NCBI GenBank assembly: GCA_905160935.1
Contig: CAJHZI010000254.1
Location: forward strand, 319,501 to 383,500
DNA length: 64,000 nucleotides
Source: Enchytraeus crypticus
Taxonomy: Eukaryota; Annelida; Clitellata; Enchytraeida; Enchytraeidae
Direction: 5' to 3'
A program made the position numbers and the translations under genes. This document shows, piece by piece, positions 833 to 63,950 of this stretch. Under the pieces are notes generated by a model. That model did no database searches. It worked only from the letters and a program-made list of their open reading frames with translations, and was not told where the DNA came from. Within the stretch, counting starts at the first letter, position 1. Each line of letters starts with the position of its first letter.

Positions 833-955
833 AGCAATGTAGAGGTGACCCTGCCTATGTACCTTGCAATGAATCAGGCACTACATGCGTTCACTATAAA
901 GACATCTGTGACGGATCCAGAGACTGTCCTACTGCCAGCGACGAATTGAACTGCG
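833..955 (+). CDS. LDLa module exon 1
   Basis: A 123-nt exon encoding one LDL-receptor class A module. The acceptor is ttaccag and the donor GTTAGT at 956. Translation in the phase shared by the other exons gives six cysteines in LDLa order, starting QCRGDPAYVPC and ending CPTASDELNCG. The Ca2+ cage is complete: CDG, D before Cys5 (SRDC) and the final SDE. N-E-S after Cys2 is an N-glycosylation sequon. The exon is 1-1 symmetric, so it can be skipped or duplicated without a frameshift. LDLa modules fold around Ca2+ and bind protein or lipoprotein ligands outside the cell. The frame stays open upstream to 730, but the acceptor at 831-832 matches the phase of all other modules. Upstream exons lie outside the window. 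Confidence 0.88.
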
Positions 956-959
956 GTTA

Positions 960-1030
960 GTCAAGATTCACTGGTTGTATAAAAAATTATAGTGTTATTG
1001 TCGTCCATGACAACATCCAGCGCTATGCAG
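960..1030 (-). repeat. LINE 3' tail (CR1/L2-like, tail family T)
   Basis: A short segment with a TTGTCATTGACGACAATAGC-like signature, here imperfect and in reverse orientation. The same signature lies at 12645-12700, 24205-24290, 29865-29925 and 49045-49095, where at two sites it follows LINE C-terminal coding remnants. It lies only a few bases after exon 1's donor site. Confidence 0.45.
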
Positions 1031-1033
1031 TAA

Positions 1034-1154
1034 AATGTATATATATATATATATACACACATATGTGCATATACATTATATACATGTATATACATATATG
1101 TGCATATACATCTATATATACGTATATGCATATATAGGCCTATATATATTATAC
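1034..1154. repeat. (TA)n/(TATG)n microsatellite
   Basis: Imperfect TA/CATA dinucleotide tract. It contains the palindrome TAGGCCTA at 1135-1142. It abuts the left end of a mariner relic. Confidence 0.85.
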
Positions 1155-1948
1155 AGGGGGAGCAAAAAAAGTGATAACACCTGCAAAAAAATTTAATATC
1201 TCCGGCAAATATTAATATTTTCAAATCAAACTTTTGCCAATTACTGAAGCACTAATTCTTGATGAGGTAGCCAATTTTCATCCATTTTAATACATAGATT
1301 GGCCCGTTATGAAAGTTTCAGCAGAACAACCCCCATATTTAATGTACTGTAAATATATTTTACGTTTAATTTTAATTCGATTTTGGTCCTGAAAAGGGCC
1401 GTTCATGTGGTTCAGAAAGAACTAGTTGTTAGCTGCTAGCATTACTGACTATTCGATATGCTTTCCTCCAGCTGCTAAGCAGGACTGCAGTAGCTTCCGG
1501 AACGCTAGGACAGCCTTCTTGATTACTCTCCCACCAAAATCGATGGTAGCTCTTCCTGCTGTTCTGTCTTGTTTTTAGGCTTCGACTGGTATTTCTGATA
1601 GAGATGAAGCATGGTTCCCTAGACATGGTAATGCAGAGGATTTTGATCGGGATAGTTTGGAAGCCATTCACTCTACTTGATGAAATGCGAATTTCTCTCG
1701 CTGATCCTTTCCTGTGCATGACGCGATGCATGAGCCGAAGCACCATCCCATTGAAAGACGAAATCATTTGGTAGAAGAGCATTGCAATCATCAAACAGCT
1801 TAAGAAGTAAAGTATTGACGTAATACTGAGCGTTAACCTTTTCCTTCTCGACAATGAAGGGCAATTTGCCCTTACTGTTGTAGCAATCTCCAATTTTAGG
1901 TAAAAAATGGGGGTTGCTCTACTGAAATTCGTGTAACTGGCCCATTTA
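1155..1948 (-). mobile_element. Tc1/mariner relic, copy 1 (DD37D-like)
   Basis: The left end (GTGATAACACC motif, 1170-1182) matches the long terminal inverted repeat of copies at 24614-26303 and 49745-50708. The right end is lost in a (TA)n tract. The minus strand encodes pieces of a transposase in at least two frames: an FQWDGASAH block containing the second catalytic Asp (within 1673-1864), then, frameshifted, C-terminal residues in 1429-1680. The spacing between the second and third catalytic Asp, judged from sister copies, is 37 residues, typical of maT-like mariners. The coding region is inactive. Confidence 0.8.
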
Positions 1949-1958
1949 TATATATATA

Positions 1959-2030
<72 letters not shown>
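1949..2030. repeat. (TA)n microsatellite
   Basis: About 80 bp of nearly pure TA that truncates the mariner copy to its left. Confidence 0.95.
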
Positions 2031-2033
<3 letters not shown>

Positions 2034-3011
2034 GACTTCAGTATACATGTATATAGACCTTTTATAAAAGATGAATACTTTTAAAAATCACCCATGTATT
2101 ATTTTCTTCATTCGTTGGAGCGGCCCCACCGTACAATCATAAACTTAATTGTTTTACGGAAGACAACTGCAATGTAATATATCCTTAATGTGCAATATAA
2201 CCTCTCCAGATATTCCATCTAGACATATATAAAAATATATTAAAACTATGTTTATCATCATTTGATAAGCAATTAAAATAAAAAATGAAATTTAAAAAAT
2301 ACCATTCTATTGTAAAATGAAAAAATACAAAATAAATATATTCGCATGTATTGAGCATTGCCAGCCGTCAATATAAGCAAACAACCCTCCCCACTCTCCC
2401 ACATGGCTTTAGTTTATTATGTGAACAGAGCTACCACTACATATTATAAAAAGTCTATATATATATATATATATATATATACTCTCAATAATATATATAT
2501 ATATATATATATTATACATATATATACATGTATAATATAGTTTAGCATTGCAATATAAATTTCTTTGAAAAAATTTATCCAATCTCCTTTAATCCGATTT
2601 TAAATCATTTAACTTTCAAAATCTTTTGACTTTGATTTATGCCTTTAGTTATAGAAAATTTTGGCCTAGTTTTTGCTATTGCTTTTTCTATTATTTCGAC
2701 TTCAGCTATTTTCCTTTACAAATAAATCTCTTGGCTTGACTTCTGCATTTACATGAATCATATATTACTGTAAATTTTGCAAAATCTTAACAAATCTATT
2801 ATAGACTTAACACTTATAAAAGTTATAACTCAAAAACGCTCACACATTATCCTGAACTTTTTAGACAAATTATAGATCTTTGCAATTTTTTACAAACAAA
2901 AAAATTTCAAATTACAAATATTTAGCCTGAAAAAATCTCTTTTATAAACTAGGAAACATAGAGTTAGAAACTAGATAAACTGTACATACCAGATGTTTGG
3001 CTGGCGGCATA
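2031..3011. other. AT-rich non-coding DNA with a (TA)n tract
   Basis: Holds a TA microsatellite at about 2457-2535 and otherwise low-complexity AT-rich sequence. I see no gene or element ends. Confidence 0.5.
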
Positions 3012-3190
3012 ACTTAACACACATCCAGTTCGACTATCTTACCGATATCGCCACTTGTTACAGCCAGTAGCGATATCAGTAGGCCAGTCGACCTCGAATC
3101 AGTATGTGCGGGGTTCAAATCCTGGGCTCTCCCGTCACTGACATCGCTTTAGTGTGAGGAAACTGACGTTAACATTAGCTTTTAACCGAG
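3012..3190 (+). repeat. tRNA-derived SINE (family S)
   Basis: B-box-like GGTTCAAATCC at 3112-3122, followed by TGGGCTCTCCCGTCACTGAC and GGAAACTGACGTTAAC, shared nearly word for word with 47970-48110 and in reverse at 40136-40225 and 395-490. Confidence 0.7.
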
Positions 3191-3242
3191 CCCCTTAGTA
3201 TCTGAGCACAGAAATCCATGTCAAGATCCAAAATATATAAAA

Positions 3243-3243
<1 letters not shown>

Positions 3244-3303
<60 letters not shown>

Positions 3304-3352
3304 TATATATATATATATATATATATATGTTATATCTATATCTATATATATT
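3244..3352. repeat. (TA)n microsatellite
   Basis: TA dinucleotide tract with a few G and C interruptions, directly left of the palindrome at 3354-3465. Confidence 0.95.
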
Positions 3353-3353
3353 A

Positions 3354-3380
3354 GGAAGATTTAAATGCTGCAGACTTGTC

Positions 3381-3438
<58 letters not shown>

Positions 3439-3465
3439 GACAAGTCTGCAGCATTTAAATCTTCC
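3354..3465. repeat. Perfect 112-bp palindrome with (TA)n centre
   Basis: Arms 3354-3382 and 3437-3465 are exact 29-nt reverse complements (left arm begins GGAAGATTTAAATGCTGCAG). They flank about 54 nt of TA, itself self-complementary, so the whole segment can extrude as one uninterrupted cruciform. Confidence 0.92.
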
Positions 3466-3479
3466 AACCAAATCTTCTA

Positions 3480-3840
3480 ATGTTTGCTTTCCTTTTCATA
3501 TCCATATATGAATTAATTTGTTATCAGATTATCCTGTATCCTATGTATCCGTCTTTTTCTGCCTATTTTCCCTTGCACTCTTAATTTAATTTCGTTCTCA
3601 AGCAAACCATTCCCCTTATAACATGCCCTATCCAGCTTTTTTCTTTCTATTTCTTTTCACATGATATCTATTATTATCTATTATTTTAACGAAAGAAGAT
3701 GTTAGGAAACTAAAGGTATTGAAATTATTATTGCGGTTATGGGAAGGGTGGAAAATATTAGTTGGACTGACAAAATTGCAAACGAAGAAGTTCGAACTGT
3801 CATAGAGACTGAGTTAAATCAACCACCAATTTGATAAATT
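3480..3840. mobile_element. RTE-like LINE fragments in both orientations
   Basis: About 3690-3830 on the plus strand resembles the tail of RTE reverse transcriptases: GATGTTAGGAAACTAAAGG, then RISWTDKIANEEV-like codons split by frameshifts. About 3480-3660 read on the minus strand resembles the following section (GHVI...EGRM-like). Both are short and decayed. Confidence 0.5.
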
Positions 3841-3874
3841 ATTTAGCCTAAGTGCTATATACCGCATGATTATA

Positions 3875-4705
3875 CACTGTGAGTCAAAAATAAACATGTG
3901 CGCAGTCTCTCGCCCATAACTTTGGTGTTAGTGAACCGAATTTTTAACTTCTTGCCTAGGTATAATCAGGAAAACATTTGCTATAAAATAACATTAAGTG
4001 ACTCTGTTAATTATTATGTTTTCGTTGAAGCAGTGCTTGAAAATATGCGTGACTGCAATATAATAATGATATTATATTACAGTCATATATATTAGTAATA
4101 TTCAGTTTAAGTAAATCAATCGCTACAGAATGTTTACAAATCCGGTGGAACTAACAATGAAACACACGAAACAAACAGTGTAATACAGCTACTGTCAACT
4201 GTCAAAGCATATGCTCACAATGTCCTCCTTTGGCGAGAATACAAGCACGGAGACGCTTGCGCCACTCATCTTCTGCGTTGGCAATGACAGATTGCTGCAT
4301 GTCTTGCCAAACGTCCACAAGGCGTTCCTTCAACTCGTCCACGTTATTTATTTTCTTCTTTTCGGCGTAATTTCTCTAATAAGCAATCTAGCCCTCCCAG
4401 CGTCCATTTTTGGTTGGAAATTTGGCAATCAACCAATGTGCACCATCACCCTTTAAGAGGTACAAGTATTTTTATGAGCGCATTATCTTCATTAGTAAAC
4501 ACCATTTTAGAATTTCAACAAAAAGAGACTATGTTTGTAAAATCGTCTCTTATTGTCTAAAATAAACCAGAAGTGTCACAAAAACTAGATTTAAGATTAA
4601 TACTTTTCTTCTTCTTTATAGTACTGAAAATATTTTCAAAATCGGTTCATAATTGTCAAAGTTGTGGACGAAATACTGCGCACATGTTTTTTATGACTCA
4701 CAGTG
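3875..4705 (-). mobile_element. Deletion-derivative mariner element A (CACTGTGAGTC ends)
   Basis: Terminal inverted repeats CACTGTGAGTC at 3875 and its complement ending at 4705, with a TA before the left end. It is about 831 bp and matches 5669-6444 in reverse orientation. The minus strand keeps decayed pieces of the N-terminal helix-turn-helix of a mariner transposase and of its C-terminal tail, with the catalytic core missing. This looks like a non-autonomous internal-deletion derivative. Confidence 0.8.
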
Positions 4706-4811
4706 TGTATGAATGTCCCCAATTATTATTATTTCAAAAGTACTATACAGGCCTAAAAGTCAAGAAATTAAATCACTCATGATAGTTTGTAGCTCAACTT
4801 CATAAAGAATG

Positions 4812-4908
4812 CGCCGGTCATACGTATGAAATAATACATAGAGTGATTTTTAAAAGTAAAGCCGCTCCTACGAATGAAATAATACATAGAGTGATTTTTA
4901 AAAGTAAA
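4812..4908. repeat. Tandem duplication of about 48 bp
   Basis: Two near-identical copies of a segment containing GAAATAATACATAGAGTG, at 4821-4860 and 4869-4908. Confidence 0.85.
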
Positions 4909-4914
4909 CACCTA

Positions 4915-5190
4915 TTATAAAATGTCTATATTGGCTCCTCTCTACTCTGTCTTACTCATTCCTCATCGTGTCCACATATGAGTGGATATTTGAATCATCT
5001 AACATTCCTAACCTCGGCATGTTTCTGCCTATATTTCATCCAATTCTGCTTTCTACGACCTGTTTTAGTACACTTTGCCCTAGAATGTGCCCTATTCAAC
5101 TCTTCTTCCTTTTTCTTAAACAGTAGCCGCGAAATGCTTCTCCAATTCTTCTCAGTATTCTTTGTTTTGTAAGACCAATATTTTAATTTC
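4915..5190 (-). mobile_element. RTE-like LINE 3' fragment
   Basis: The minus strand gives a frameshifted IGHILGQSVLKQVVESRI block and a downstream match to the 'MLDDSNIHSYVDT' type end also seen at 59180-59510. Decayed and 5'-truncated. Confidence 0.5.
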
Positions 5191-5349
5191 TTCCTAATAA
5201 TTAATATCGTTACAAAATAATATACTACACAGTCCTACACATAATTTGTTAACCAAGCACATGCTGCATCCATTTATGTCGTTGAAACTTTATTTAAATT
5301 CGATATTGCCAACATGTTGACTACTTAGAATTTGTATTTCTTTGTTCAG

Positions 5350-5469
5350 ATTGCAATTGGCCGTTGCTAAACTGTAACGGGACATTTGCACTCCAATCTT
5401 GCGTGCACATTTATGTAGTGTGCGATGGAAATGATAACTGCGGTGACAACGAAGACGAGACAAACTGTG
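5350..5469 (+). CDS. LDLa module exon 2
   Basis: A 120-nt phase 1-1 exon, acceptor tttgttcag, donor GTGAGT at 5470. It encodes six cysteines: CNWPLLNC, CVHIYVVC, then DGNDNC and GDNEDETNC. The Asp normally found before Cys5 is Asn (DNC), so the Ca2+ cage is altered, but CDG and DE remain. N-G-T directly after Cys2 is an N-glycosylation sequon. This is one of the shorter modules. It sits between two inverted mariner derivatives (3875-4705 and 5669-6444), which could pair in the pre-mRNA. An internal CTGCGGTGAC resembles a donor but would cut the module. Confidence 0.9.
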
Positions 5470-5608
5470 GTGAGTTTCAAAATTATTTCTGATTTTAGTG
5501 TTTAAATCCATGAAACTTTTGATTGTATTAAAACAGTCTTTAATACAATATATGCCCCAATTTTAATTAAATATTACCATAATTTGTAATTTCAATTATA
5601 TTCAGGTT

Positions 5609-5609
<1 letters not shown>

Positions 5610-5668
<59 letters not shown>
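5610..5668. repeat. (TA)n microsatellite
   Basis: Pure TA tract that has replaced the left terminus of the adjoining mariner derivative. Confidence 0.95.
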
Positions 5669-5675
<7 letters not shown>

Positions 5676-6444: not shown

Positions 6445-6462
6445 TAGATATACAGTATAGGC

Positions 6463-6469
<7 letters not shown>

Positions 6470-6509
<40 letters not shown>

Positions 6510-6549
6510 TATTATTATATCTCTCTCTCTCTCTTTCAAAAGTCACTAC

Positions 6550-6594
<45 letters not shown>

Positions 6595-6614
6595 AATTAC
6601 CAGTTTAACCACGG

Positions 6615-6666
<52 letters not shown>

Positions 6667-6688
6667 TTATAGATATATGTATATATAG

Positions 6689-6743
<55 letters not shown>

Positions 6744-6805
6744 AGTGACTTTGAGAGATATATATATATATACATATATATATGTGTGTGTGTGTGTGTG
6801 TGTTT
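6470..6805. repeat. Cluster of (TA)n, (TC)n and (TG)n microsatellites
   Basis: Four TA tracts (about 6474-6507, 6553-6592, 6620-6660, 6690-6738), a short CT run and a TG run at about 6782-6803. Confidence 0.95.
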
Positions 6806-7142: not shown

Positions 7143-7164
7143 TGTAACGAGGGAACTAGTTTTA

Positions 7165-7500: not shown

Positions 7501-7511
7501 ACTGTAGAGTG

Positions 7512-8229: not shown

Positions 8230-8352
8230 AAACTTGCAGAGGACTCTCCTCAAAGTTTTCTTGTAATGGAAGCGAAACCTTTTGTCTTGAAACTGATCAA
8301 GTCTGTGACGGATTAAAACATTGCCGGAACAACCTCGACGAAATTAATTGCG
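8230..8352 (+). CDS. LDLa module exon 3
   Basis: A 123-nt phase 1-1 exon between ttttttcag and GTAAGC. It encodes TCRGLSSKFSC, NGSETFC, LETDQVC, DGLKHC and RNNLDEINC with six cysteines. CDG and DE are kept, but the Asp before Cys5 is His (KHC), so Ca2+ binding may be weak. N-G-S directly follows Cys2. An LTR fragment ends about 200-345 bp upstream. It starts with the same C-R-G signature after Cys1 as modules 1, 6, 7 and 11, suggesting tandem exon duplication history. Confidence 0.9.
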
Positions 8353-8960: not shown

Positions 8961-8964
8961 TGGT

Positions 8965-13495: not shown

Positions 13496-13621
13496 AAAAT
13501 TGTCGAAACAAATCTGGATATATGTATTGCGGTGCATATTCGCAATGTGTGAGGAACGAAAAATCCTGTGACGGTTACACAGACTGTTTCAACGGATATG
13601 ATGAGGATGAAACTTACTGCG
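13496..13621 (+). CDS. LDLa module exon 4
   Basis: A 126-nt phase 1-1 exon between aacttcag and GTAAGC. It encodes NCRNKSGYMYC, GAYSQC, VRNEKSC, DGYTDC and FNGYDEDETYC, six cysteines. The Ca2+ cage CDG..DC..DE is complete. The Cys5-Cys6 gap is ten residues instead of the usual eight because of a doubled DE (DEDE). Unlike most modules here it lacks the sequon after Cys2 (CGAY). It lies downstream of a minus-strand LINE fragment and upstream of a large TA-rich block. Confidence 0.9.
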
Positions 13622-21951: not shown

Positions 21952-22074
21952 GCAGATGTGTATTCCCGAAGGTACCATGTAACGGCACAGACGCAATTAC
22001 ACAATGCGTTCAGTTCTCGTTACTCTGCAATGGAATAGACGATTGTGGAGACAATGAGGACGAAACTAACTGTG
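21952..22074 (+). CDS. LDLa module exon 5
   Basis: A 123-nt phase 1-1 exon between catctttcag and GTACGT. It encodes RCVFPKVPC, NGTDAITQC, VQFSLLC, NGIDDC and GDNEDETNC. Six cysteines; the first Ca2+-ligand Asp after Cys4 is Asn (CNG), while DDC and DE are kept. N-G-T follows Cys2. Its C-terminal half (GDNEDETNCG) is identical to module 2, indicating that these two modules are closely related despite 16 kb between them. The frame also stays open past the donor, but GTACGT and the phase match mark the exon end. Confidence 0.9.
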
Positions 22075-26861: not shown

Positions 26862-26984
26862 AATCATGTCGTGGCAGCCAATCGAAAATCTCTTGTGGCA
26901 GAGACGACACCAGGTGCATAGATGAGTATCTTATTTGTAATGGAAGGAAAGATTGTGTCAGCGGTGGGGACGAAATTAACTGCG
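26862..26984 (+). CDS. LDLa module exon 6
   Basis: A 123-nt phase 1-1 exon between tttacacag and GTGAGA. It encodes SCRGSQSKISC, GRDDTRC, IDEYLIC, NGRKDC and VSGGDEINC. Six cysteines; CNG replaces CDG, and KDC and DE are kept. There is no sequon after Cys2 (CGRD). The exon is only 870 bp from exon 7, one of the two closest pairs in the array, and modules 6 and 7 share the C-R-G start and the GGDE end, so a local tandem exon duplication is likely. Confidence 0.9.
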
Positions 26985-27854: not shown

Positions 27855-27980
27855 AAACATGTCGCGGTAAGGATAGAAGTTTTGTGTATTGTAACGGAAC
27901 GTCTACAAAATGCATTCCGCAGTATCAAATATGCAACGGTGATGACAACTGCGGTAACGGAGGAGACGAGACGAATTGCG
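27855..27980 (+). CDS. LDLa module exon 7
   Basis: A 126-nt phase 1-1 exon between actgtcatag and GTATGG. It encodes TCRGKDRSFVYC, NGTSTKC, IPQYQIC, NGDDNC and GNGGDETNC. Six cysteines; the Ca2+ cage is reduced (CNG, DNC) but DE remains. N-G-T follows Cys2. Two internal sequences, CGCGGTAAGG (near 27863) and CTGCGGTAACGG (near 27950), look like strong donors; use of either would break the module, so they may be cryptic sites. Confidence 0.9.
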
Positions 27981-35375: not shown

Positions 35376-35660
35376 CTAATTGTCGCAATGATTTTAGTAT
35401 GGTGATTTATTTCAGCAAATTGACGCAATGATGCTTTTGTAGTGTTTTTGTTTCAGATAATTGTCACAATCACCCTATTGAGGTGTTTTTGTTTCAGATA
35501 ATTGTCGCAATGATCCTATCATGGTATTTTTGTTTCAGCTAATTGTCACAATTATCGTGGAATTGTGTTTTTGTTTCAGCTAATTGTCACAATGATCCTA
35601 GTATGGTGTTTTTGTTTCAGCTACTTGTCGCAATGATCCTAGAATGATATTTTGTGTGGG
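35376..35660 (+). repeat. Seven tandem copies of the exon 8 splice acceptor (41-nt unit)
   Basis: The unit is a pyrimidine tract, (C)AG, then CTAATTGTCACAATGATCCT. AG dinucleotides end at 35375, 35415, 35456, 35497, 35538, 35579 and 35620: spacing 40, 41, 41, 41, 41, 41. Only the last unit continues into the LDLa reading frame. Six upstream units are near copies of the acceptor plus the first part of the exon. Confidence 0.92.
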
Positions 35661-35743
35661 TACATCGAGTCAATGTGTGCAGGATAACAATATTTGTAAC
35701 GGCCTCAGTACGTGCAATAATGGCTACGACGAAAGAAACTGCG
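35621..35743 (+). CDS. LDLa module exon 8
   Basis: A 123-nt phase 1-1 exon, donor GTATAG. It encodes TCRNDPRMIFC, VGTSSQC, VQDNNIC, NGLSTC and NNGYDERNC. Six cysteines, but Ca2+ ligands are mostly lost (CNG, STC); DE remains. No sequon after Cys2 (CVGT), though N-N-I etc. do not replace it. The acceptor is the last of seven tandem 41-nt copies. Because 41 is not a multiple of three, splicing to the two nearest upstream acceptors shifts the frame, and the third upstream one meets a stop, so only the last acceptor gives a module. Confidence 0.88.
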
Positions 35744-38973: not shown

Positions 38974-39093
38974 ATCATTGTAAGAGAGATGATGAGGTGT
39001 TGTGTAACAGAACACAAGTCTGTATAAAGGCAACCAATTTATGCAACGGTATCAATGAATGCAAAGATAACGAAGATGAGGAAGGCTGCGTTG
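38974..39093 (+). CDS. LDLa module exon 9
   Basis: A 120-nt phase 1-1 exon between gtgtgcag and GTATGA at 39094. It encodes [29 protein letters not shown] and KDNEDEEGC, followed by V-G at the junction instead of the usual G. Six cysteines; CNG and NEC weaken the Ca2+ cage while DE is kept. N-R-T follows Cys2. It is the shortest Cys1-Cys3 spacing of the set. An 11-bp minisatellite begins about 95 bp after the donor. Confidence 0.88.
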
Positions 39094-39187
39094 GTATGAA
39101 ATCTCGGTCATTATTTATAGCATTGCGTAGCAATTAGTTTAAATATGTTCTTTATTTCACCAAATTCATGGCAGTAAAAAACACATA

Positions 39188-39366
39188 CAATAGAAATCAA
39201 ACACAACATAAACACAACATAAACACAACATAAACACAACATAAACACAACATAAACACAACATAAACACAACATAAACACAACATAAACACAACATAAA
39301 CACAACATAAACACAACATAAACACAACATGAACACAACATAAACACAACATAAACACAACATAAA
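39188..39366. repeat. 11-bp minisatellite (ATAAACACAAC)n
   Basis: About 16 nearly perfect copies. Because 11 is not a multiple of 3, all minus-strand frames read the same 11-residue repeat (YVVFMLCLCCV), producing spurious long open frames. Confidence 0.95.
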
Positions 39367-46515: not shown

Positions 46516-46638
46516 AGACTTGCAAGGGAATGACTGATCGCGTCTATTGCAACCACTCAACATCTCTCTGCATAAACTCCAGTAAACTGTGTGACGGGAT
46601 AAATGACTGTAAAAGCTGGGACGACGAAATCAACTGCG
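46516..46638 (+). CDS. LDLa module exon 10
   Basis: A 123-nt phase 1-1 exon between aaatttcag and GTGAGC. It encodes TCKGMTDRVYC, NHSTSLC, INSSKLC, DGINDC and KSWDDEINC. Six cysteines and a complete Ca2+ cage (CDG, NDC, DDE), with a Trp before the DDE. N-H-S follows Cys2 and a second sequon N-S-S occurs between Cys3 and Cys4. Modules 10 and 11 share the WDDE end and are only 1.5 kb apart, suggesting a recent local duplication. Confidence 0.9.
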
Positions 46639-48129: not shown

Positions 48130-48252
48130 AATCCTGCAGAGGAATGGAGGGCCTAGTATTCTGCAACAACTCGTATTCACAGTGTATCCACAGAAGCGAT
48201 GTGTGCAATAGACGAGTGAGCTGTATAAACTGGGATGACGAGGCGCATTGTG
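48130..48252 (+). CDS. LDLa module exon 11
   Basis: A 123-nt phase 1-1 exon between atatttgcag and GTATAC. It encodes SCRGMEGLVFC, NNSYSQC, IHRSDVC, NRRVSC and INWDDEAHC. Six cysteines. The Ca2+ cage is the most degraded of the array: CNR replaces CDG and VSC lacks the acidic residue; only DDE is kept. N-N-S follows Cys2. The polypyrimidine tract lies only about 20 bp from a SINE end, and a TTACCAG near 48103-48109 is a possible competing acceptor. Confidence 0.88.
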
Positions 48253-48839: not shown

Positions 48840-48983
48840 AACGCTGGTCTAGCTGTGACATCCTGTCAGCGAAGCAGCAGAGTTTTGTTGCGTGTAACGG
48901 AACTGAAGGGATGTGCATACCAACAACTCTGCTGTGCAACGGCTATGACAATTGTCCTGATGGCGAAGATGAGAAACACTGCG
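48840..48983 (+). CDS. LDLa module exon 12
   Basis: A 144-nt phase 1-1 exon, acceptor ttgttgtcacag, donor GTATGT. It encodes RWSSCDILSAKQQ, SFVAC, NGTEGMC, IPTTLLC, NGYDNC and PDGEDEKHC. Six cysteines; it is longer than its sisters because of extra residues before Cys1 and a 12-residue Cys1-Cys2 gap. CNG and DNC alter the Ca2+ cage, DE is kept. N-G-T follows Cys2. This is the last LDLa module I find; it ends in phase 1 and so cannot join the phase 2 channel exon at 63668 directly. Confidence 0.87.
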
Positions 48984-51500: not shown

Positions 51501-52480
51501 AGGATCATTTTGTACTCCAATCAATTCAGCATGTAATGACTCAAATATTCCAAACGTAGCCCTACAGTATTCTTCTCTTGAAATATGTGAAGTTCCGAAT
51601 TTATCAAAAGGAATTATTTCTCTAGAAGCTAATCTTTTTTGCTAAGTGTCAGTTGAGTTCGGAACAGGGACTTCTTCCTCAGAATGCTCCTGTTTCGCAG
51701 GATTTTGTCGTTCTAAATGATTCGGTTGCAGTCTATAGGAATCCAGCCCATGCGTGATACGTTTCCTTATCTGCAGTTCCCAATATTTCTGACCAAAGAT
51801 GGCAGATAAATTCAAGTTCTACGGACAATTCTCACTTTCCAAATTCTGAGATTTCATCTGATGAAGAAGAATTGGTTAATTTGAATGCGGTAATTTTAGA
51901 GGAGAAGGAAATAACTATTAATTCAGAAGTTAATCATAATAACTACTTTAAATCAGCATCCCCCACTGAATTGAGACGAAGCAATTGCACTCACAGATCT
52001 GATTTCGAGCTGACTCTTGCTGAAGTTAAAGCACTCTGTGGTGAAGTGGACACTACATCGGGAAGACAACAGAGGAGGAGAGGTGCACACTATAACAGGA
52101 TCCTTGTCGAAAGGGAACAGGAGGTCACAAATGCAATTCTTCTAAAAGCTGGAAATCATATGAAAGAGACAGAACCTGAATATAAGCCAGAAAATCATTA
52201 GAAATGTCCTATTCAGAGTTGAATTCAATATCTAAAGATTCATGTAAGATAATTACGTATGCCCGCAGTTTCCTATTGGAACGTCGCATTTTGCCCCAAG
52301 CCCAGAGTTCCCCCGCAAACCTACTCTACATCCCTGGGTTTACGTACGTCAAGGTAATATCGTGTTCATTTAGTCATGGCATGTCCGGAAAATCTTCGGA
52401 GGGATCCACTTCGCCCAATCCTCGCCAGCCCAATACAACAGAAGATGCAGTAAACTACAGAGTCTCCTACCAGCTTCCAG
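51501..52480. other. Unassigned sequence between retroelement and retrocopy
   Basis: Short open frames on the plus strand (51872-52201, 52204-52563) with no recognised domain. The region may be retroelement-derived. Confidence 0.35.
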
Positions 52481-52487
52481 AGGAATA

Positions 52488-53295
52488 TTTGCCGCCAATG
52501 GGTATTTTCCATAGTTGGGACATCTCGAATTGGAATCTTGCCAACATTTTGATGCCAGCTTAAATACTGGATTTTGACCCTCGTACACTTATGGAGGATC
52601 TTACGACACGACCCTTCATCTACTATCCTGTCTTTAATGCAGCCCTTCAGGCGGTGACAGAGGACAATATGATCGCTGGTAATGACAAGTTTGAGTATCT
52701 CCAGCACCTCAGCAGGACATCAGAAAGTTCAAGTCCGAGTCGGGTGTGGATAAGGCGATAGCGTTGTGGACAGCGAACACTGAAAGATTCAATGATATAA
52801 GGGCGGGTCTCTATGACACGACTGATAATCTTAGCTCTTTCATCAGAAGGAGTGAGGCAGACGTATCGCCCTCCACTCTATTCACCGTAGGGTACATACT
52901 AGAGGGCAGTTCCTTCACCTACGGAAGTCCTCAGAACTCCTGCGTGCCCGAAGCAATTGTTCTGGCTGAGTGTTTAAAGATATACATCGGAGGTGATGAT
53001 TTCAAGTCAGGTCATAGGAAGCGAAAGTCTGTTCTCGTTGACTTTCTCGTTGACACGGGCTTCAAGCCCACCTCCTTCGTCGGCTATATCCACCTCGGCA
53101 ACAGCGACGGGATGAACCTCTCGGCACTCAAACAGTTCCGCTCTAAAGGGATACTAAAGTTGATTACGGTTGATGACATGGTAGCCTTTAATAGAATCCT
53201 ATACAAAGAGAACAACAAGCCGGATCACTACATATTCATACAATACGTGACATCTGTGGAAGAGAGCAAGAGAGCTTTGGATGATTACACAGGTC
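52488..53295 (+). pseudogene. Processed pseudogene of inositol-3-phosphate synthase
   Basis: The plus strand reads, without introns, HSWDISNWNLANIL (52520-52560), after a stop ILDFDPRTLMEDL and RPFIYYPVFNAALQAVTEDN (52564-52690), then after a frameshift near 52720 DKAIALWTANTERF, SPSTLFTVGYILEGSSFTYG, GSPQNSCVPEAI, GGDDFKSGHRKRKSVLVDFL, HLGNSDGMNL, FRSKGILKL and SKRALDDYTG (52746-53290). These follow inositol-3-phosphate synthase (ISYNA1/INO1) in order, e.g. its GDDFKSGQTK, VDFL, HLGNNDG and FRSKE blocks. The enzyme converts glucose-6-phosphate to inositol-3-phosphate in the cytosol. The copy lacks the N-terminal NAD-binding part and the end, and has a stop and a frameshift. Confidence 0.85.
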
Positions 53296-53589
53296 AAAGA
53301 GTGATGCAGAGAGAGCTAGTATTGCCACCTTCATCACCTCTACCATTACCTCCTGGCTTCTCCCCCTCTCTGATGCGTCACACGGGAGGGAGAGATCACA
53401 GCTTCACCGTGTCTAAAGATAATAAACTACCAATCTGCATGTCTTACTGATGCGATATAACGCAGTATTGAGAATTCTTCAAGTCTTATTTAATTTTAAG
53501 TTTTACAAATATGTATGGATTCACATAGGGAAAGGTAATAATGGACCCCTTAAGGAAAAGTAACTAGGCCTATTTCATGAAAGTATGAA

Positions 53590-55690: not shown

Positions 55691-55699
55691 AGCTTTAAG

Positions 55700-57880
55700 T
55701 GCTCTGGAATAACGAGTGCTCTACAATAACGGTCACAGGCAATATACGAACGTAGAATACGATCGTATATATACGCATATGATCGTTGATATACATGTAG
55801 GCACGTAGAATATGATGTGCTCTCATTTGTGTCATAAAAATACCGATACAGTATAGGGCCTAAATAAATTGATAGGATTTTATTCTACAGTATCGGCATA
55901 AAAAATTTTCAACTAACTGGTCCAAATTAGGAAACTCGTTCCTAAGATGGACCCCCACCCCGATATGCTAAATTTGACCCAATGTACAGAATATAATAAT
56001 AAAGCTGTAAATAACAATCTTTTGCATATAATTAGGGCTTCTCTATTAAATATCCACCTACATATATACATCGATTAACTAACAGCTACATTCAAGTAGC
56101 TTTATATTTATGTTATAAGCGCGTTTCCATTTAAGTCAATTAAATTGCTAAGAAAGAATATCACTGTGAAATGGTGAAAGGAAAAGTTCTTCTCTGAGTG
56201 CAGTGCCTGTTCCAAGCCTGAGTGGTCATGGTCAAATTCCTCCATATGTCTCTGTTCATTGTTGCTCTGATCATCTCTGTTGCAGTACTTGGTACTGGAT
56301 CATCCCAAATATGGCCCTCTAATCAATAGCGAGATATTCATGATATGTAGCCTAGTCATTGTAGATTATAATTCCTTAACAAAATAACATTTCCAACTTT
56401 ACTCTAACGTATTGACCAACGCAATTGTCACAAGCTACATTGAGTCCTAAGTGGCCTTTTCATCATTAATATAAATTCAGCATTACTTACGTGTCAATTA
56501 ATCAGCCTCATAGGGTCATTGTCACTTTCCTATGTGTAGAGTTTGCTAACAGAGAATGTGGAGCGCTGCATAGTATCAGGAGTAGGAAGAGCAGAGAATT
56601 AAGGGCTCTTCCGTGTGACGAGAACCTCATGTTCCTAGGCTTTACCATTGCTCTACGGTTTAGTCTTGAGTCAATACAAGACCTGGTAATAGATATTCGT
56701 TCATTCGTACATGTATACATGTGTATATATTTACGCATTATGTCACGTGTTGTGAACACTGAAGAATAAACCAGCCTGTTAACTACATATTCCGTAAGAG
56801 GCGACTTAACTTGAACTGAGGAAACCACACCAAAGGCCATATCTTCCCAAGCTATAATCTAAATCAGGCATGGATAAGGCATAGCCTATGTGCAGTGGTA
56901 TCAATTGATTGTTCTTGATGAAGCATGTAGGCCAACTCAGAACGAGCCCGTACACTTTTAGCAATATCAAATTTTTCAGTAAGTAAATTTTTCAGAATAA
57001 TAGATGTTAATTCAGCCTTTATAATACTGTTTAATTAATATATGATCTTTTATTCAAAAAAATGCATGGCAGTAAGAACAGAACAAGAAATGTAAAAAAT
57101 AACTAACGAACAGAAAAACAGAAATTACGGATTCACCATTAAAGAGTCTGAAAGCAGAAAAATATAAACTAAAGTCGCCGTTTATCTTAGGATCTACTTT
57201 CCATAATCTAATTAGGTTAATATACATGTATCCTTTACAAGCTGTTGAATGCTAGGGCTATTAAATAAAATATATTTGATATCATAAAAATGTGATATAT
57301 TGAATTAAAATGGAAAAACTCATAAAATTTGAACCATATTTGCAAATCTGTGTTATCTTGATTGTTTGACGTTTTCATTCAAATAGGATGAAATATCAGA
57401 AGTAATTTATTTCCGGGGAAATATTCAAACTGTGAGTTCCCTTTTTATTGTCTTGACTTCTGCATATTTATTCAGAACGTTCTTAATCAATTGGTGAGAT
57501 AAAATATATTATGTTTCTTGAATGTATTTAAAGATAATAGCAACTACTTATCTTCAAACAGCGGTTATCAATGCATATAGGGCCTACTGATTTAAAGTAC
57601 TAATTATAATGTAATGCATTCATGAAAAGATTGCTAAATTTTACCATACTCATTATTTTAACTAAAATGATTAAGATAGGAAGATGAGAACTGTCGGAGG
57701 TTTGTATATATCTAAATAACTGAATTCAATACTGTAGGTAAATATAACTGTGCAGGATGGTTTGCATTTAAATATGAATACCGTAGCAAGACGACTGAAG
57801 AAGGAAGGAAGAATACAAGGTAAAGAGTTAGAGGACGATCGAGACATGGAATGTTGGATGATCGTATAACAAATCCATAA
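55700..57880. other. Long stretch without recognised gene
   Basis: I searched for ligand-binding-domain exons and LDLa exons on the plus strand and found none. A 92-codon open frame at 56491-56769 shows no recognisable domain. No clear element ends. Confidence 0.45.
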
Positions 57881-57884
57881 ACAC

Positions 57885-58778: not shown

Positions 58779-59179
58779 AGATGAAACGAAAGGCTGAGGA
58801 TAGACTTGGTAGAAAATGAAAAGTTTTAATAGTTTCTCACTTTCGGGAAAATGATCATTAAAATTTAATATTGAAGTTGTACGCGATAAATATTTGAATT
58901 TAATTGGTAATATTAATATTGCCATAAATAATCATAAATTTAAATAAGTTTACTTGAATACCGACAAGTTTTAGCCCGTGCTAATGCAATGCACGTGTAC
59001 ATGTCTATCAGAGTGTTTCTTCAAATAAATTACAATTCAGATGTATCTTTGCACCAATATACCGAGATGCAGCGCCAGCCCCTAGGCTCTTAAAGAGATA
59101 TCCGGAAGAATTTAGCTTTAGAATTTCAAAACCTTCAAATTGTAAGAGTATAGCCTACCCATAGGTCTAAAATGGTAGA
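58779..59179. other. No recognised feature
   Basis: AT-rich sequence with no coding signal. Confidence 0.5.
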
Positions 59180-59510
59180 GGATTAGCTTAACTCAGGAGG
59201 TTGCAAATGAGAAAGTTCTGGAGAGAGTAGGTACAGATAGGCAGTTGATAATGTATTAAGGAATAGTAAGAAGAGTTGGATAGGACACATTCTAAGTGGG
59301 GAAGGTCTATTAATAGAGGAAATAGAAGCTAGAATGGAAGGAAAAAGAGGCAGGGCAGGCCGATATTAGGTATGCTACTTGATATGAAGATCCATGTACT
59401 CATATGTGGACATGAAGAGGAAAGCGGAAGACAGAGAAGAGTGGAGGAATTATATACCATGAACCTGCCAGTAGTAGCAGTGCATTAAAAGAGAGAGATA
59501 TACGTGATAT
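59180..59510 (+). mobile_element. RTE-like LINE 3' fragment
   Basis: The plus strand reads, with shifts, SWIGHILSGEGLLIEEIEAR and MEGKRGRAGRY, then CATGTACTCATATGTGGACA, the standard end of RTE-like ORFs, and a 3' end (TATATACCATGAACCTGCCA) shared with 8965-9145 and 36900-36960. Confidence 0.7.
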
Positions 59511-59640
59511 AAGTCGGTAAGTCGTTGATGTGAATCAGTACGTGTTCAAGTCCAGCGCTTTCTTCGTCACAAGCTTTCCAGATAGGAAACTGACTTCTAA
59601 CATAGCGTTAGCTTTCTGGATTTTTACGTGGATTTCATTC
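59511..59640 (+). repeat. Diverged SINE (family S-like)
   Basis: GTGTTCAAGTCCAGCGCTTTC and GGAAACTGACTTCTAACATA resemble family S after its B box. A related tRNA-like piece may lie at 59960-60035 (GGATTCGAGG). Both are weak. Confidence 0.4.
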
Positions 59641-61853
59641 CTTTGGAAATCTTTATGATCCCAGTGTAATGCATCTTTTAATTAAAAGATTTAATTCATC
59701 CATTAATCATTTAATTCTTGCGAATTCTCTCTTGCCAATGATTAGATTTATTTAGTTAATTAATTAATATTATTAATTTAATACATTTATTCATTTTTTA
59801 TGAATCCGTAAACATGTAAAACATTTGATGTAGACTTGGAGAGACTGCTCAATAAGCTGGAACATGAAAGAGGACGGAGCACCGACTTCGATTTTAGTTC
59901 CATCCAGCTCTGTGTGGACTCCAACAATTGGTATAACTAATAGGTTAGTATACATGTATCTCTCTAGAGCCAGTGGTGCTGTTGGCAAGATATTCGACCG
60001 CGGATTCGAGGACCGCGATATTAGACCCATGTGATATGCTTTTTGCTACAGAATTGGCTCTGATGTAATGAGTGTCTAGGGTGTTATGTGTTTTTAATGG
60101 AGTACTCAAATCTTGACTGAATACTAGAAACGAGATAAACGTTAAATAAGTCTTGAAGACCTTTCAATAAAACATGGAAACTTTCGATAGCACAAAAGCC
60201 ATAGTGACAGATATTTTAAAAGACAAATGAATAAAGTAAAATACTTGGCCTTTAAACAGTTCGAAACGAAAATGTTCTTCACAATTTTATCAATAGTACG
60301 TCAATGCGGATCCTGAAATGGTAGAGCGAAAATTCCAGTGAAGAAACACAAATAGATATAGGCCTATCGACAGCGAAAATGTCCTTCATCCATTAAATGT
60401 AGACAAGATCTCCAGAATGTTCTGAAATGAAGAGATCTGATTATGATTCTGTGAGATAACGATTATAACTAGCTATGTCGACTTGAGAATTGAGTGGTTC
60501 AAAACCTTGTCTCACCCGTTACTGACATATTAGCCTTTTAGCTTTATCTCTCTCCAGCGTTCTGCCCAGTGGCAGGTCTAATGTGCAGCTTTCATAGCCA
60601 TTTGGTTCTTTTCACACTTGGTGTAGAGAGCATTCCATAGATGAACGAGTCCTATCACAAAGACTATGCCTTGTCCACACCTTCTCCAGCTTCGAAATAA
60701 TATAATTTCTGAAGTGGCTTCCCGTGGCTTTCGTCATTTCTTACTCAGTCTCCTCTAACAAAACTTAATAAGTTAGTAACAAATAGGCCTACTAGTTGTC
60801 ATTTGCTCTCGTTTTATTTCTTTAACATAATTCAAATGCATTCATATCTAAAATTGACATTAATACTCCTACGCATGTATATATGTGATATTTAGTTGGA
60901 ATATGCCAGATCATGAACATACTTTTTCTGAAATAAAGAGAGGCACAGGCCTTCATGTATTTATACATGTATAGAGTATAATTCAGACAGCTGCACGTAT
61001 TTCTTTCCTTTTTTATTAATTTATTCCGTACAAAATATTTCCCTTTCAAATAAAAGTGATTAGGAAGTCTTCCTATGACTACTAGGTTCCACTTAGAATA
61101 TTAGAGAACAAAAAAATATAGGAGAGAACATAAAGAAGCAAAAGAAAAGAACATCAAAGAATTGGTAAAGTATAGAGTTTTGTGGAGGAACATCATAGAG
61201 AAGTCATGGCTGGAACCAGCCCCAGGATGATCACATGGCATGACATGACTGCAATTATTAAAGCACTTAACCATATTTTTAATTTCCAAAGAATAAATCA
61301 CCTTACAACTTTTACTTGTATATTTTCTATAAAATAAGAACAATTGTAATGTATTTTACAAATATTTCCAATATTGACATTATCAACAATCCAATATAGT
61401 TCAAAACTGCAACATTGCGAACATATATTTATACAAGGATCCGTACGAACACAGAATGGAAGGTAAATCTTTCCACCATTATTAATATTGCTACAGTTTG
61501 CAAAAAATATTCATAATAATCTACCTTTATCTTATAATTATTAAATGCTATTGAACCTCGCTATAAACCGGATTTACAAATTTTGAAACCGATCGGCTCT
61601 TCCTGTGCCAAATTTCAGTACTTCTATCCTCAAGACATATATCGCTGTACAGGGTCCCATCGATTGGTTCTCCTTACATCTTGTGTATTTTGTACTCTCG
61701 TCTCTATTCATTTACGACTATTTTAAACAAAGCTTAAGTGTAGTGTGCGCCCGCTTCCTTTATGCTCCGGCTAAATTTTATAATTATATCCGATAAAGTA
61801 AAAGTAATACTCTACATTTCTGAAAAATTTTATATTTTACCATGCTTTATTAT
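59641..61853. other. Long stretch without recognised gene
   Basis: No LDLa or channel exon seen despite directed search. TAGGCCTA occurs at 60359 and 60784. Open frames here show no domain signature. Confidence 0.45.
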
Positions 61854-63521
61854 TAGAGATGGGAATCGAACCGAACACGAACCGAACCAAACCCTGAAAT
61901 CTGGAATTGTGACCGAACGGAACCCGAACCCAGACTCTGGCCGAACCCGAACCAAATCCGAATCAAAACTCTGTCCGAACCCGAACCGAATCCTGGCTTC
62001 GTCCAAACCGAACCTATCTCTTGGAGTTCCTTTCTCCTTCGCCAGCTTCAGGAGAAAAGACACTTTTCTTTTCAGCTATTTCTCAAAATCCTCATTAAGA
62101 TATTATAGAGAATGTGTAACATTATATAAAGATAATAAGAACAATGCACATATCTTTTAGTTTTGTATTTACATGTCTTACAGTATCTAACAGCATATAT
62201 TCAGGTCAGGCTGGTTCTGACACAAATTTTAAAATTAATAACAGATAACGATACAAAGGAATGGTAGCGTTACAAAAGAATGCTAGCGGGAAGCGAGACT
62301 GTTCCACATAAGACAATGGATAATCTGAATGATACGGCATTGAAATATGGAATTAAGATTAACATCAAAGAGACAAAAGTGGTGAGAGTATCCCAGACTA
62401 GAGGTCCCAGACTGGAGGTCAAGTCAATATAATAATAAGTGTAACGAAATTGGAACAGGTAAGGAGTTTCAAATATTTAGGTCATACTATAACAGATGAT
62501 GGGAAATGTGAGACAGAAATATACAATATAGTAGGATTAAACAAGCAAAAGCAGTCTTCGATAATAGGAAAGAACTTTAAACAAAAAGCCTAAAGAAAGA
62601 CACTAAGATAAACATTGCGAAAACCTTGGTATGGACCACACTATTATATGGATGTGAAACATGGACTTTATAGAAGGTAGATATTAGGAAACTGGAGGCA
62701 CTAGAAATGTAGATTTGGCGAAGAATGAAGAGGATAAGCTGGACTCAAATAAACTCCTAGTTTCAAATTTGGAACCCCAAGGTAAATTATGAAGTTTATT
62801 ACTGGTTAAGTTGATAGCAAACGGTATATATTCTGATCTTTTTTCTGTGGAAGTAAACGTTTTTACCAAACTGTTCTTATTTGACATTTAATAAATTGCA
62901 CTTTTTCTCTGAAATATTGGACCAAATTTAAGTCAAGACATTTCCACCTAATTGTAAACGTTTCTAATACATAGGCATTGTGACAAAAGTTATTTTTAAA
63001 TTGATGAAGCATTCCATTTGTTGGTTATAGTCAAGGGGAATTTTTAGATACAGTAATAAAGCTAAATATCTATTTGATGAACATTTGTTGGTCAACTTAC
63101 AATATTTTAAGAAATATTGAAATGTACAGGAATAAAAATACTAAATAAAATAAAAAATAAAAATGATACCAAATAAAATACTACTTCTCTCCTTTTTTCA
63201 TTGTCATATTTTTAGTCAGATGAAAATGTGGCAGTTAATATGAATTCATGTATTTTAAGCACATTTACCGTAAACTATTTTAAACATGTTCATCATAACT
63301 ATGATTATTATAAGTAATGGTAAATAATTGCAACATTATCCTAACCAAGCCATTTCGAACTGTAATCGAACTCTTGTGAGATGGAAAGCAAGCCGAACCC
63401 CGAACCGAACCCGAACTCTAAAATTGTCAACTGCTAACCGAACCCGAACCGAACCGAACTTTCATTTTCAACAAACCGAACCGAACTCTGGAAATTCATA
63501 AAATTCCCATCTCTATTATAT
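61854..63521. mobile_element. Terminal-inverted-repeat element E2 (E family)
   Basis: Begins TTAGAGATGGGAAT (61855) and ends in its complement (63521), each followed inward by dense CGAACCGAAC/GGTTCGGTTC arrays. Homologous to E1 (14352-21140) and to 30485-31180. About 1.67 kb including an RTE-like insertion (62265-62765). No transposase recognised. Confidence 0.75.
62265..62765 (+). mobile_element. RTE-like LINE fragment inside E2
   Basis: The plus strand reads, frameshifted, LNDTALKYGIKINIKETKVV, EQVRSFKYLGHTITDDGKCE and LVWTTLLYGCETWTL, RKLEALEM, RRMKRISWTQ: the signature end of RTE-type reverse transcriptases, with stops. Confidence 0.82.
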
Positions 63522-63667
63522 CGTTTCATATATTTATCCTAAATATCTTTATTCTTTTAATAATGCACATTTATCGATAGTTATTACAAATATCTTACTG
63601 CGAAATAGCTTATTATCCAGCCTTCAATGTGTACAATATTTTCGGGAAGCTTATCCATATCTTGCAG
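63522..63667. other. Intron end before the channel exon
   Basis: Non-E sequence between E2 and the acceptor tatcttgcag; nothing else seen. Confidence 0.5.
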
Positions 63668-63950
63668 GGCTGGCGATGTATTTGGTGAAATCTTGGACAA
63701 GAATCGTTATAAAATTCAACTTGAGTACGACAGTAACGTTCACTGGAAAGCTTGGGGGAGGGTTCCAACTAGGTGTCCACTGGATATGACGTACTTTCCA
63801 TTCGACAATCAAGCATGCTACCTGGAATTATCTCTATTTGGCTACGATGAAAGTAGGCAAATATATGTCAAACCACCAAATACTGATCCCTTGGATATAG
63901 TAAACTTCGTTGAAAATGTGCAGTGGGAAATTACCAGTAGACGAGCTGTG
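63668..63950 (+). CDS. Cys-loop ligand-gated ion channel, ligand-binding-domain exon
   Basis: A 283-nt exon, acceptor cttgcag, donor GTAGGT at 63951; it enters in phase 2 and leaves in phase 0, giving 94 codons. The product starts AGDVFGEIL (the usual ADG position after loop A), continues VHWKAWGRVPTRC, then the Cys loop CPLDMTYFPFDNQAC with exactly 13 residues between cysteines (residues 36 and 50), then LELSLFGYDE where loop B lies, and ends FVENVQWEITSRRAV. FPFD and the VENxxWE block resemble nicotinic and other cation-type subunits. The loop B Trp found in nicotinic subunits is absent (Phe-Gly-Tyr instead), a feature more like glycine/GABA subunits. Loop C and the membrane segments lie beyond the window; loops D and A must be in upstream exons that I did not find. 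Pentameric receptors of this family gate ions in the plasma membrane when bound by a transmitter. Confidence 0.95.

What the first reader, a model, noticed from the sequence alone, without database searches (positions are those of the whole stretch)
833..63950. Candidate fusion: at least twelve LDLa modules ahead of a Cys-loop ion channel
Seen: twelve single-module LDLa exons, all + strand, all phase 1-1, followed by a + strand Cys-loop ligand-binding exon with no other host gene between them. Known: Cys-loop subunits normally have only a short leader before the ligand-binding domain, while LDLa-containing LEV-10/LEV-9 and Neto act in trans on neurotransmitter receptors. Inference: here the accessory modules may be in cis, giving a subunit with a large Ca2+-stabilised, glycosylated ectodomain that could capture a matrix, lipoprotein or secreted ligand or cluster the channel.
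Basis: partly seen in the sequence, partly recalled or inferred. Interest (0 to 1): 0.88.

Follow-up and report, generated by a model that had tools for sequence, protein, structure and literature searches.

The report
LDLa array fused to ion channel
This animal genome carries a family of genes that appear to join a chain of LDL-receptor-type modules to a nicotinic-receptor-like ion channel in one protein, a combination I did not find described and which could be a new kind of sensing or clustering receptor.

Summary
Confirmed and extended. All 12 LDLa exons are real: + strand, phase 1-1; a 13th lies just upstream. M1-M4 follow beyond the window.

Fusion is well supported without RNA. The last LDLa exon ends, and the first ligand-binding exon starts, in phase 1. 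Of nine related channel loci examined, eight have the same order, four with LDLa12-to-channel introns of only 532-674 bp. Genome-wide, 20 of 22 module-12-like hits lie upstream of a family channel exon on the same strand. The ninth, LDLa-less, has a signal-peptide exon at that intron. This suggests exon shuffling, then expansion to at least 21 loci.

Against: this gene's own 7.5 kb intron holds a good signal-peptide-like exon (56228), so a channel-only form may also exist; it also holds a broken inositol-phosphate-synthase copy, contradicting 'no other host gene between'.

The channel is nicotinic-like, probably cation-selective, but lacks much of the acetylcholine site. Function is inferred.

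The parts
833..955 (+). LDLa exon 1 (phase 1-1)
5350..5469 (+). LDLa exon 2 (phase 1-1)
   Evidence: counterpart in paralogue at C172:250175
8230..8352 (+). LDLa exon 3 (phase 1-1)
   Evidence: counterpart C172:250932
13496..13621 (+). LDLa exon 4 (phase 1-1)
   Evidence: degenerate counterpart C172:260252
21952..22074 (+). LDLa exon 5 (phase 1-1)
   Evidence: no counterpart found in the tandem paralogue
26862..26984 (+). LDLa exon 6 (phase 1-1)
   Evidence: counterpart C172:264149
27855..27980 (+). LDLa exon 7 (phase 1-1)
   Evidence: counterpart C172:265986
35621..35743 (+). LDLa exon 8 (phase 1-1)
   Evidence: counterpart C172:268839
38974..39093 (+). LDLa exon 9 (phase 1-1)
   Evidence: counterpart C172:271079
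46516..46638 (+). LDLa exon 10 (phase 1-1)
   Evidence: counterpart C172:271497
48130..48252 (+). LDLa exon 11 (phase 1-1)
   Evidence: counterparts C172:272505 and C172:98942
48840..48983 (+). LDLa exon 12 (phase 1-1), last module before the channel; its type is found in this place at all eight LDLa-bearing loci read
52204..53447 (+). retrocopies inside the LDLa12-to-channel intron (eIF4E-BP-like fragment; broken myo-inositol-1-phosphate synthase); not part of the gene product
56228..56291 (+). signal-peptide-like ATG exon with a weak phase-1 donor, possible internal start of a channel-only form (uncertain)
56540..56685 (+). channel exon E2, start of ligand-binding domain (146 bp, phase 1 to 0)
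57387..57431 (+). channel exon E3 (45 bp, phase 0 to 0)
59834..59943 (+). channel exon E4, W.D and WTP motifs (110 bp, phase 0 to 2)
63668..63950 (+). channel exon E5 with the Cys-loop C-13-C and FPFD.Q (phase 2 to 0)

Best explanation
The window holds most of one + strand gene of about 71 kb that encodes a nicotinic-type Cys-loop channel subunit with an N-terminal array of at least 13 LDLa modules. SHOWN by sequence: the exons, their phases, their conserved order, and the repetition of module 12 plus channel at no fewer than 21 loci of this genome. INFERRED: single-module 1-1 LDLa exons entered the phase-1 intron between the signal-peptide exon and ligand-binding exon 2 of an ancestral nicotinic-like gene; the array multiplied, and the whole gene spread by tandem and dispersed duplication. 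The mature subunit would project the acidic, N-glycosylated LDLa chain from the top of the ligand-binding domain, up to 65 modules per homopentamer, over a cation-type pore (Glu at -1'). Because the loop A Tyr, loop B Trp and loop C cysteine pair of the acetylcholine site are missing, I think the channel is not a classical acetylcholine receptor. Most likely (about 0.35) the array captures a large, probably basic or matrix- or lipoprotein-like ligand, or tethers and clusters the channel, in an expanded sensory-type receptor family. A channel-only form from an internal start may exist beside it in this copy.
For: 12 exons phase 1-1, 13th module. Channel exons E2-E4 found between array and Cys-loop exon, raising PF02931 to 101.5 bits, 5.9e-29, and the best PDB match (muscle AChR alpha) to 123 bits. 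M1-M2, M3, M4 exons downstream. Tandem paralogue at C172:250-295 kb has modules 2, 3, 4 (degenerate), 6-12 in the same order, then E2-E6. At eight of eight LDLa-bearing loci read, module 12 ends in phase 1 and an E2 acceptor in phase 1 exists; introns 7556, 581, 2574, 532, 674, 1113, 567 and 1644 or 1656 bp. The split codon is Glu at five loci, Pro at two (C|CA, C|CC, both halves changed) and Thr at one. 20 of 22 module-12-like hits have the nearest family channel exon 3.9-23.6 kb downstream on the same strand, in both orientations. C103: no LDLa in the 13 kb read, signal-peptide exon with phase-1 donor, then E2 in phase 1. Own versus paralogue dN/dS 0.20 for 365 LDLa codons and 0.20 for 404 channel codons.
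Against: No transcript evidence. In this gene the intron between LDLa 12 and E2 is 7556 bp and holds a leader-like exon (56228, MVKFLHMSLFIVALIISVAVL then G, donor GTACTG) 249 bp before E2. On the + strand of the 183.5 kb read it is one of only two sites of that quality, the other being the leader before the array; my earlier chance figure of 0.41 (57) was inflated by a tandem repeat on the - strand. At C235 an ATG at 97446 reads in frame into E2. The signal exon of the full gene is not settled: the strong leader at C172:319100 (window -400) has no good phase-1 donor joining it in frame to the first module. Two of 22 module-12-like hits (C223:325174, C207:87204) have no family channel exon downstream within 100 kb in the list used. 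In the paralogue, module 4 is degenerate and module 5 was not found.
Confidence: 0.86

Rival explanations
1. Both forms exist: the fused long form, and in this copy (perhaps also C235) a short channel-only form from an internal start near E2, so the LDLa array is an alternatively used ectodomain.
For: Signal-peptide-like exon at 56228, 249 bp before E2, one of two such + strand sites in 183.5 kb; in-frame ATG at C235:97446.
Against: The two candidates are not alike; the donor GTACTG is weak; gene 3 shows no leader at the 9-of-12 threshold, and in gene 5 and C402 no convincing leader was seen among all ATGs of the intron.
Confidence: 0.3
2. Two neighbouring genes that duplicate together: a secreted multi-LDLa protein gene followed by a channel gene with its own signal exon.
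For: The module-to-channel gap here is 7.5 kb, with a signal-peptide-like exon at 56228 and dead retrocopies inside.
Against: Introns of 532, 567, 581 and 674 bp at four loci would have to hold a 3' end, a promoter and a signal exon. Listing every ATG in three of these gaps gave no convincing leader exon at gene 5 and C402, and one in-frame candidate at C235; the fourth (C722) was not listed. E2 has no in-frame ATG upstream in this gene and gene 5. Phases match and the split codon changes jointly.
Confidence: 0.07
3. This copy is a decaying pseudogene of the fused family.
For: The 5' signal exon could not be joined in frame; the neighbouring paralogue has a degenerate module 4; retrocopies sit in its intron.
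Against: All 13 modules and exons E2-E6 are open, 819 residues without a stop; the six cysteines and the DE pair are invariant over 19 modules; dN/dS 0.20 against the paralogue over 769 codons.
Confidence: 0.08

Closest known systems
Nicotinic acetylcholine receptor subunits (Cys-loop, PF02931 + PF02932)
   Same: Ligand-binding and membrane domains, C-13-C Cys-loop with FPFD.Q, Glu at -1', exon sizes 146/45/110 bp and phases that I recall for vertebrate nicotinic exons 2-4
   Different: At least 13 LDLa modules before the ligand-binding domain; a very short loop C without the cysteine pair; Asn, Thr and Phe at the loop D, A and B positions (read from the alignment)
Expanded lophotrochozoan nAChR families (PMC6896357; passages and section 5 read)
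   Same: Large tandem expansion with unusual domain combinations
   Different: It reports 33 domain combinations and its Table 1 names no LDLa; 'other functional domains' are named only as 'such as' dynamin and GAIN; 'LDL' occurs 0 times in the main text
Cephalopod chemotactile receptors (PMC11526382, passages read)
   Same: Divergent, expanded nAChR relatives that do not bind acetylcholine
   Different: No LDLa array is mentioned in the passages read; activated by hydrophobic molecules
LEV-10 and Neto accessory proteins (PMC9083331, passages read)
   Same: LDLa-containing ectodomains associated with neurotransmitter-gated channels
   Different: Separate type I membrane proteins acting in trans, one LDLa each, with CUB domains; for LEV-10 the CUB domains do the clustering
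LDL receptor, VLDL receptor, LRP2 ligand-binding repeats
   Same: Tandem LDLa modules; best PDB sequence match LRP2, 2.4e-53
   Different: Pfam finds only LDLa in the joined modules; full Ca2+-ligand acids in 3 of 13 modules; followed by a channel instead of one membrane helix

Membership tests
Cys-loop / nicotinic-type pentameric channel subunit | Neur_chan_LBD with the Cys-loop | tested here: met
   PF02931 101.5 bits, cut-off 26; CPLDMTYFPFDNQAC in exon 63668-63950
Cys-loop / nicotinic-type pentameric channel subunit | Four membrane segments (M1-M4) | tested here: met
   PF02932 just over cut-off (29.0-30.1 bits, cut-off 28.1); M1-M2 exon, M3 exon and M4 exon by reading and by paralogue similarity; M3 exon borders not fixed
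Cys-loop / nicotinic-type pentameric channel subunit | Acetylcholine site: aromatic box and loop C vicinal cysteines | tested here: not met
   Alignment to muscle alpha: loop A Thr for Tyr, loop B Phe for Trp, no cysteine pair in loop C, loop D Asn; a Tyr does align with the second loop C Tyr. So nicotinic-like by descent, not filed as an acetylcholine-binding subunit
Cys-loop / nicotinic-type pentameric channel subunit | Assembles as a gated pentamer | not testable with these tools
   Needs expression and recording
LDLa module array | Six cysteines plus C-terminal DE in each module | tested here: met
   13 PF00057 stretches; C3, C10, C19, C26, C32, D37, E38, C41 invariant in 19 modules, 13 of this gene and 6 of the paralogue
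LDLa module array | Complete Ca2+ cage acids in the modules | tested here: not met
   Motif D..D..DE complete in 3 of 13 modules, DE in 13 of 13; the motif is recalled
Fused LDLa-channel gene (proposed) | Modules and channel in compatible phase, same strand, same order in paralogues | tested here: met
Fused LDLa-channel gene (proposed) | One transcript across LDLa 12 and E2 | not testable with these tools
LEV-10 / Neto-type accessory protein | CUB domains plus a single membrane helix | tested here: inconclusive
   No CUB in the joined 13 modules and a four-segment channel downstream, but only 10 of the ORFs between array and E2 were scanned with Pfam
Cephalopod-type chemotactile receptor | Gated by hydrophobic contact chemicals | not testable with these tools
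   Analogy only

The most novel reading that the evidence does not exclude
A new receptor class: nicotinic-like cation channels that have traded the acetylcholine site for a built-in LDL-receptor-type capture array, so that binding of a macromolecule (lipoprotein, secreted protein, matrix or microbial surface) at up to 65 modules per pentamer is turned directly into an ion current. It arose by textbook phase-1 exon shuffling and expanded to more than 20 genes like a chemoreceptor or innate-recognition family.
Probability: 0.25. Interest if true: 0.92.

Novelty: new variant of a known kind. Interest (0 to 1): 0.76.

Why it matters
Animal Cys-loop receptors are usually thought of as a ligand-binding domain plus pore with only a leader before it, and the known LDLa accessory proteins act in trans. 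A multi-gene family with an LDLa array in cis (13 modules here, 8 at C235, fewer in the pieces read elsewhere) would be a clear case of a neurotransmitter-type channel rebuilt by exon shuffling, with an LDLa-less relative in the same genome to show the insertion point. It offers a direct test of how an ectodomain that binds large ligands can gate or place a pentameric channel, and it suggests a further receptor type among large nicotinic-like expansions.

Tried and rejected
Protein database search with the channel part of the joined protein: 316 candidates, none at E <= 0.001; the collection seems to hold few animal proteins, so this says nothing about rarity. Direct splicing of LDLa 12 to exon 63668: rejected on phase (1 against 2). 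Distant Cys-loop queries found E4 but not E2 or E3; the paralogue comparison found these. Leader scan with a 9-of-12 hydrophobic threshold is a weak test: the C103 leader was not listed by a rule of that threshold, so every ATG was listed instead for three gaps; the gaps at gene 3, C723, C722 and C207 were not listed in that way. A matching 5' signal exon between this gene and C235 was not found. Papers: ten searches; 'Cys-loop' with 'LDLa' gave 0 papers and 'Neur_chan_LBD' with 'Ldl_recept_a' 0 papers; 'LDLa' with 'acetylcholine receptor' gave 36 papers, 20 listed, the listed ones mostly on the LRP4/MuSK synapse, only PMC9083331 opened. PMC4795631 (passage and section 15 read) trimmed termini and so could not show such fusions. 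Subscription papers, UniProt and InterPro architectures could not be checked, so a predicted protein of this type may already be deposited. Rfam gave 0 matches in the window; tRNA scan 0. No structure prediction was run. The species was not identified.


Full report
WHAT IS THERE. Each begins with two bases that complete a codon and ends one base into the next (phase 1-1), with AG and GT borders. A thirteenth, at window -254 to -132, has the same form. Pfam sees 13 PF00057 stretches in the joined modules, E 2.7e-62.

THE CHANNEL. The Cys-loop exon 63668-63950 starts in phase 2, so it cannot follow LDLa exon 12 directly. Comparison with a Cys-loop relative and with a tandem paralogue located three earlier exons: 56540-56685 (146 bp, phase 1 to 0), 57387-57431 (45 bp, 0 to 0) and 59834-59943 (110 bp, 0 to 2). 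I recall these as the sizes and phases of vertebrate nicotinic exons 2, 3 and 4; no call confirms that. With them the ligand-binding domain score doubles (50.4 to 101.5 bits), and the best solved relative is muscle acetylcholine receptor alpha, 123 bits (E5 and E6 alone gave 90 bits to alpha-6). The first 32-35 residues of exon 56540 lie outside these matches. Beyond the window come the M1-M2 exon (from 67168), an M3 exon (about 68835) similar in the paralogue, and an exon with intracellular loop, M4 and stop (within 70077-70532). The pore carries Glu at -1', as in cation channels (reading of the alignments). Of the acetylcholine site, loop A has Thr for Tyr, loop B Phe for Trp, loop D Asn, and loop C is short without the cysteine pair, though one loop C Tyr aligns.

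IS IT ONE GENE? Six lines of evidence say yes. First, E2 starts in phase 1, the phase in which every LDLa exon ends. Second, an upstream tandem paralogue on C172 (250-295 kb) repeats modules 2, 3, 4 (degenerate), 6, 7, 8, 9, 10, 11 and 12 in the same order, then E2-E6. Third, further loci repeat it: C172 gene 3 (modules 11 and 12 in the piece read), C235 (8 modules), C402 (5 in the piece read), C723 (5 in the piece read), C722 and C207 (module 12 in the pieces read). So of nine family channel loci whose upstream DNA was examined, eight have LDLa modules. Fourth, the intron between module 12 and E2 is 7556, 581, 2574, 532, 674, 1113, 567 and 1644 or 1656 bp at the eight loci, with a phase-1 donor and a phase-1 acceptor at each (at C402 the start of E2 is poorly conserved, so its acceptor is less certain). 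The split codon is Glu at five loci, Pro at two with both halves changed, and Thr at one. Fifth, of 22 module-12-like hits in the genome, 20 have the nearest family channel exon downstream on the same strand, 3.9-23.6 kb away, in both orientations. Sixth, C103, a distant relative (35% in the Cys-loop exon), has no LDLa in the 13 kb read, and instead a signal-peptide exon MSGIFLGYLQLMCTVSVLLSTAGIYAET with a phase-1 donor, followed by a phase-1 E2. The array therefore sits exactly in the intron between signal exon and ligand-binding exon 2.

SELECTION. Between this gene and the paralogue, dN/dS is 0.20 over 365 LDLa codons and 0.20 over 404 channel codons (Nei-Gojobori; exon E3 and modules without a match at E <= 0.01 were left out; several exons are saturated at synonymous sites). 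Both parts are under similar purifying selection.

RESULTS AGAINST. There is no transcript. This gene's own intron is long and holds a leader-like exon at 56228 (MVKFLHMSLFIVALIISVAVL, then G and a weak donor GTACTG), 249 bp before E2. At the strictest setting of my scan it is one of only two + strand sites in 183.5 kb; the other is the leader just before the first LDLa module. My first estimate, 0.41 by chance, was inflated by a tandem repeat on the other strand. It may therefore be a real internal start in this copy. No such exon was found in the 581 bp and 674 bp introns of gene 5 and C402 or, at a weaker test, in gene 3, but at C235 an ATG at 97446 runs in frame into E2. The full gene's signal exon is not fixed: the strong leader at C172:319100 has no good in-phase donor. 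C223:325174 and C207:87204 are module-12-like hits without a family channel exon close downstream in the list.

HOW MANY. Counting module-12/channel pairs: C172 six, C425 one, C722 four plus the locus, C723 three, C439 one, C235 two, C223 one, C402 one, C207 one, so at least 21 loci; whether each is intact was not tested. Eight were read base by base at the junction. C172 genes 1 and 2 look nearly identical (nearly equal scores and equal spacing) and could be an assembly duplicate.

HOW IT MAY WORK (inference). The array would rise from the top of each subunit's ligand-binding domain. It is acidic (net -51 over 540 residues) with 12 N-glycosylation sites, in 10 of 13 modules just after the second cysteine (79 of 2000 shuffles reach 12 sites, so the number alone is only weakly unusual). 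Only 3 of 13 modules keep the full Ca2+ acids, so not all need bind Ca2+ in the usual way. LDLa modules in LDL-receptor relatives bind basic partners (general knowledge). With the acetylcholine site altered and the family expanded, I favour capture of a large ligand or surface that gates or positions the channel, in the manner of other nicotinic relatives turned sensory (cephalopod chemotactile receptors, passages of PMC11526382). A tether or clustering role, as LEV-10 and Neto play in trans (passages of PMC9083331), is the main functional rival.

KNOWN OR NEW. The searches listed in Tried and rejected found no paper on LDLa plus Cys-loop in one protein. The survey of lophotrochozoan nicotinic receptors (PMC6896357, passages and section 5 read) reports 33 domain combinations, names no LDLa, and leaves some 'other functional domains' unnamed. 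I file it as a new variant of a known kind.

Noticed in passing
window 52204-53447 (+): Retrocopies of an eIF4E-binding-protein-like fragment (PF05456, 3.4e-05) and myo-inositol-1-phosphate synthase (PF07994 8.6e-24; PDB 9m53 2.5e-60), the latter with a stop and a frame change.
   Followed up: partly
window 56228-56291 (+): Signal-peptide-like ATG exon 249 bp before channel exon E2; possible internal start of a channel-only transcript.
   Followed up: partly
C172:409035-409322 (about window 89535-89822, L015): ORF with repeats RYSEFLGGKR and RFSEFIGGKR, like an EFLGG-amide neuropeptide precursor (family name recalled).
   Followed up: no
window 73044-73990 (L013): Reverse-transcriptase-like remnants in several frames (my reading, no search).
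   Followed up: no
whole genome G000: Very large Cys-loop family: 405 first-look candidates, 150 scored, all 150 over the Pfam cut-off.
   Followed up: no
C172 paralogues, M1-M2 exon: The M1-M2 exon is 85% identical between this gene and the paralogue while the ligand-binding exons are 45-60%; synonymous divergence also varies strongly from exon to exon, which looks like patchy gene conversion.
   Followed up: partly
C235:97681-98000 (L031): Minisatellite reading KQRVFKQRLF / LNKEYLNKDY directly after channel exon E2.
   Followed up: no
C223:325174 and C172:2506, 41109: LDLa hits with the same score and query range; the C223 one has no family channel exon downstream in the list used. Possibly a recent copy or an LDLa-only remnant.
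   Followed up: no
window 39181-39362 (-): Short tandem repeat that reads CCVYVVFML repeatedly, about 90 bases after LDLa exon 9.
   Followed up: no
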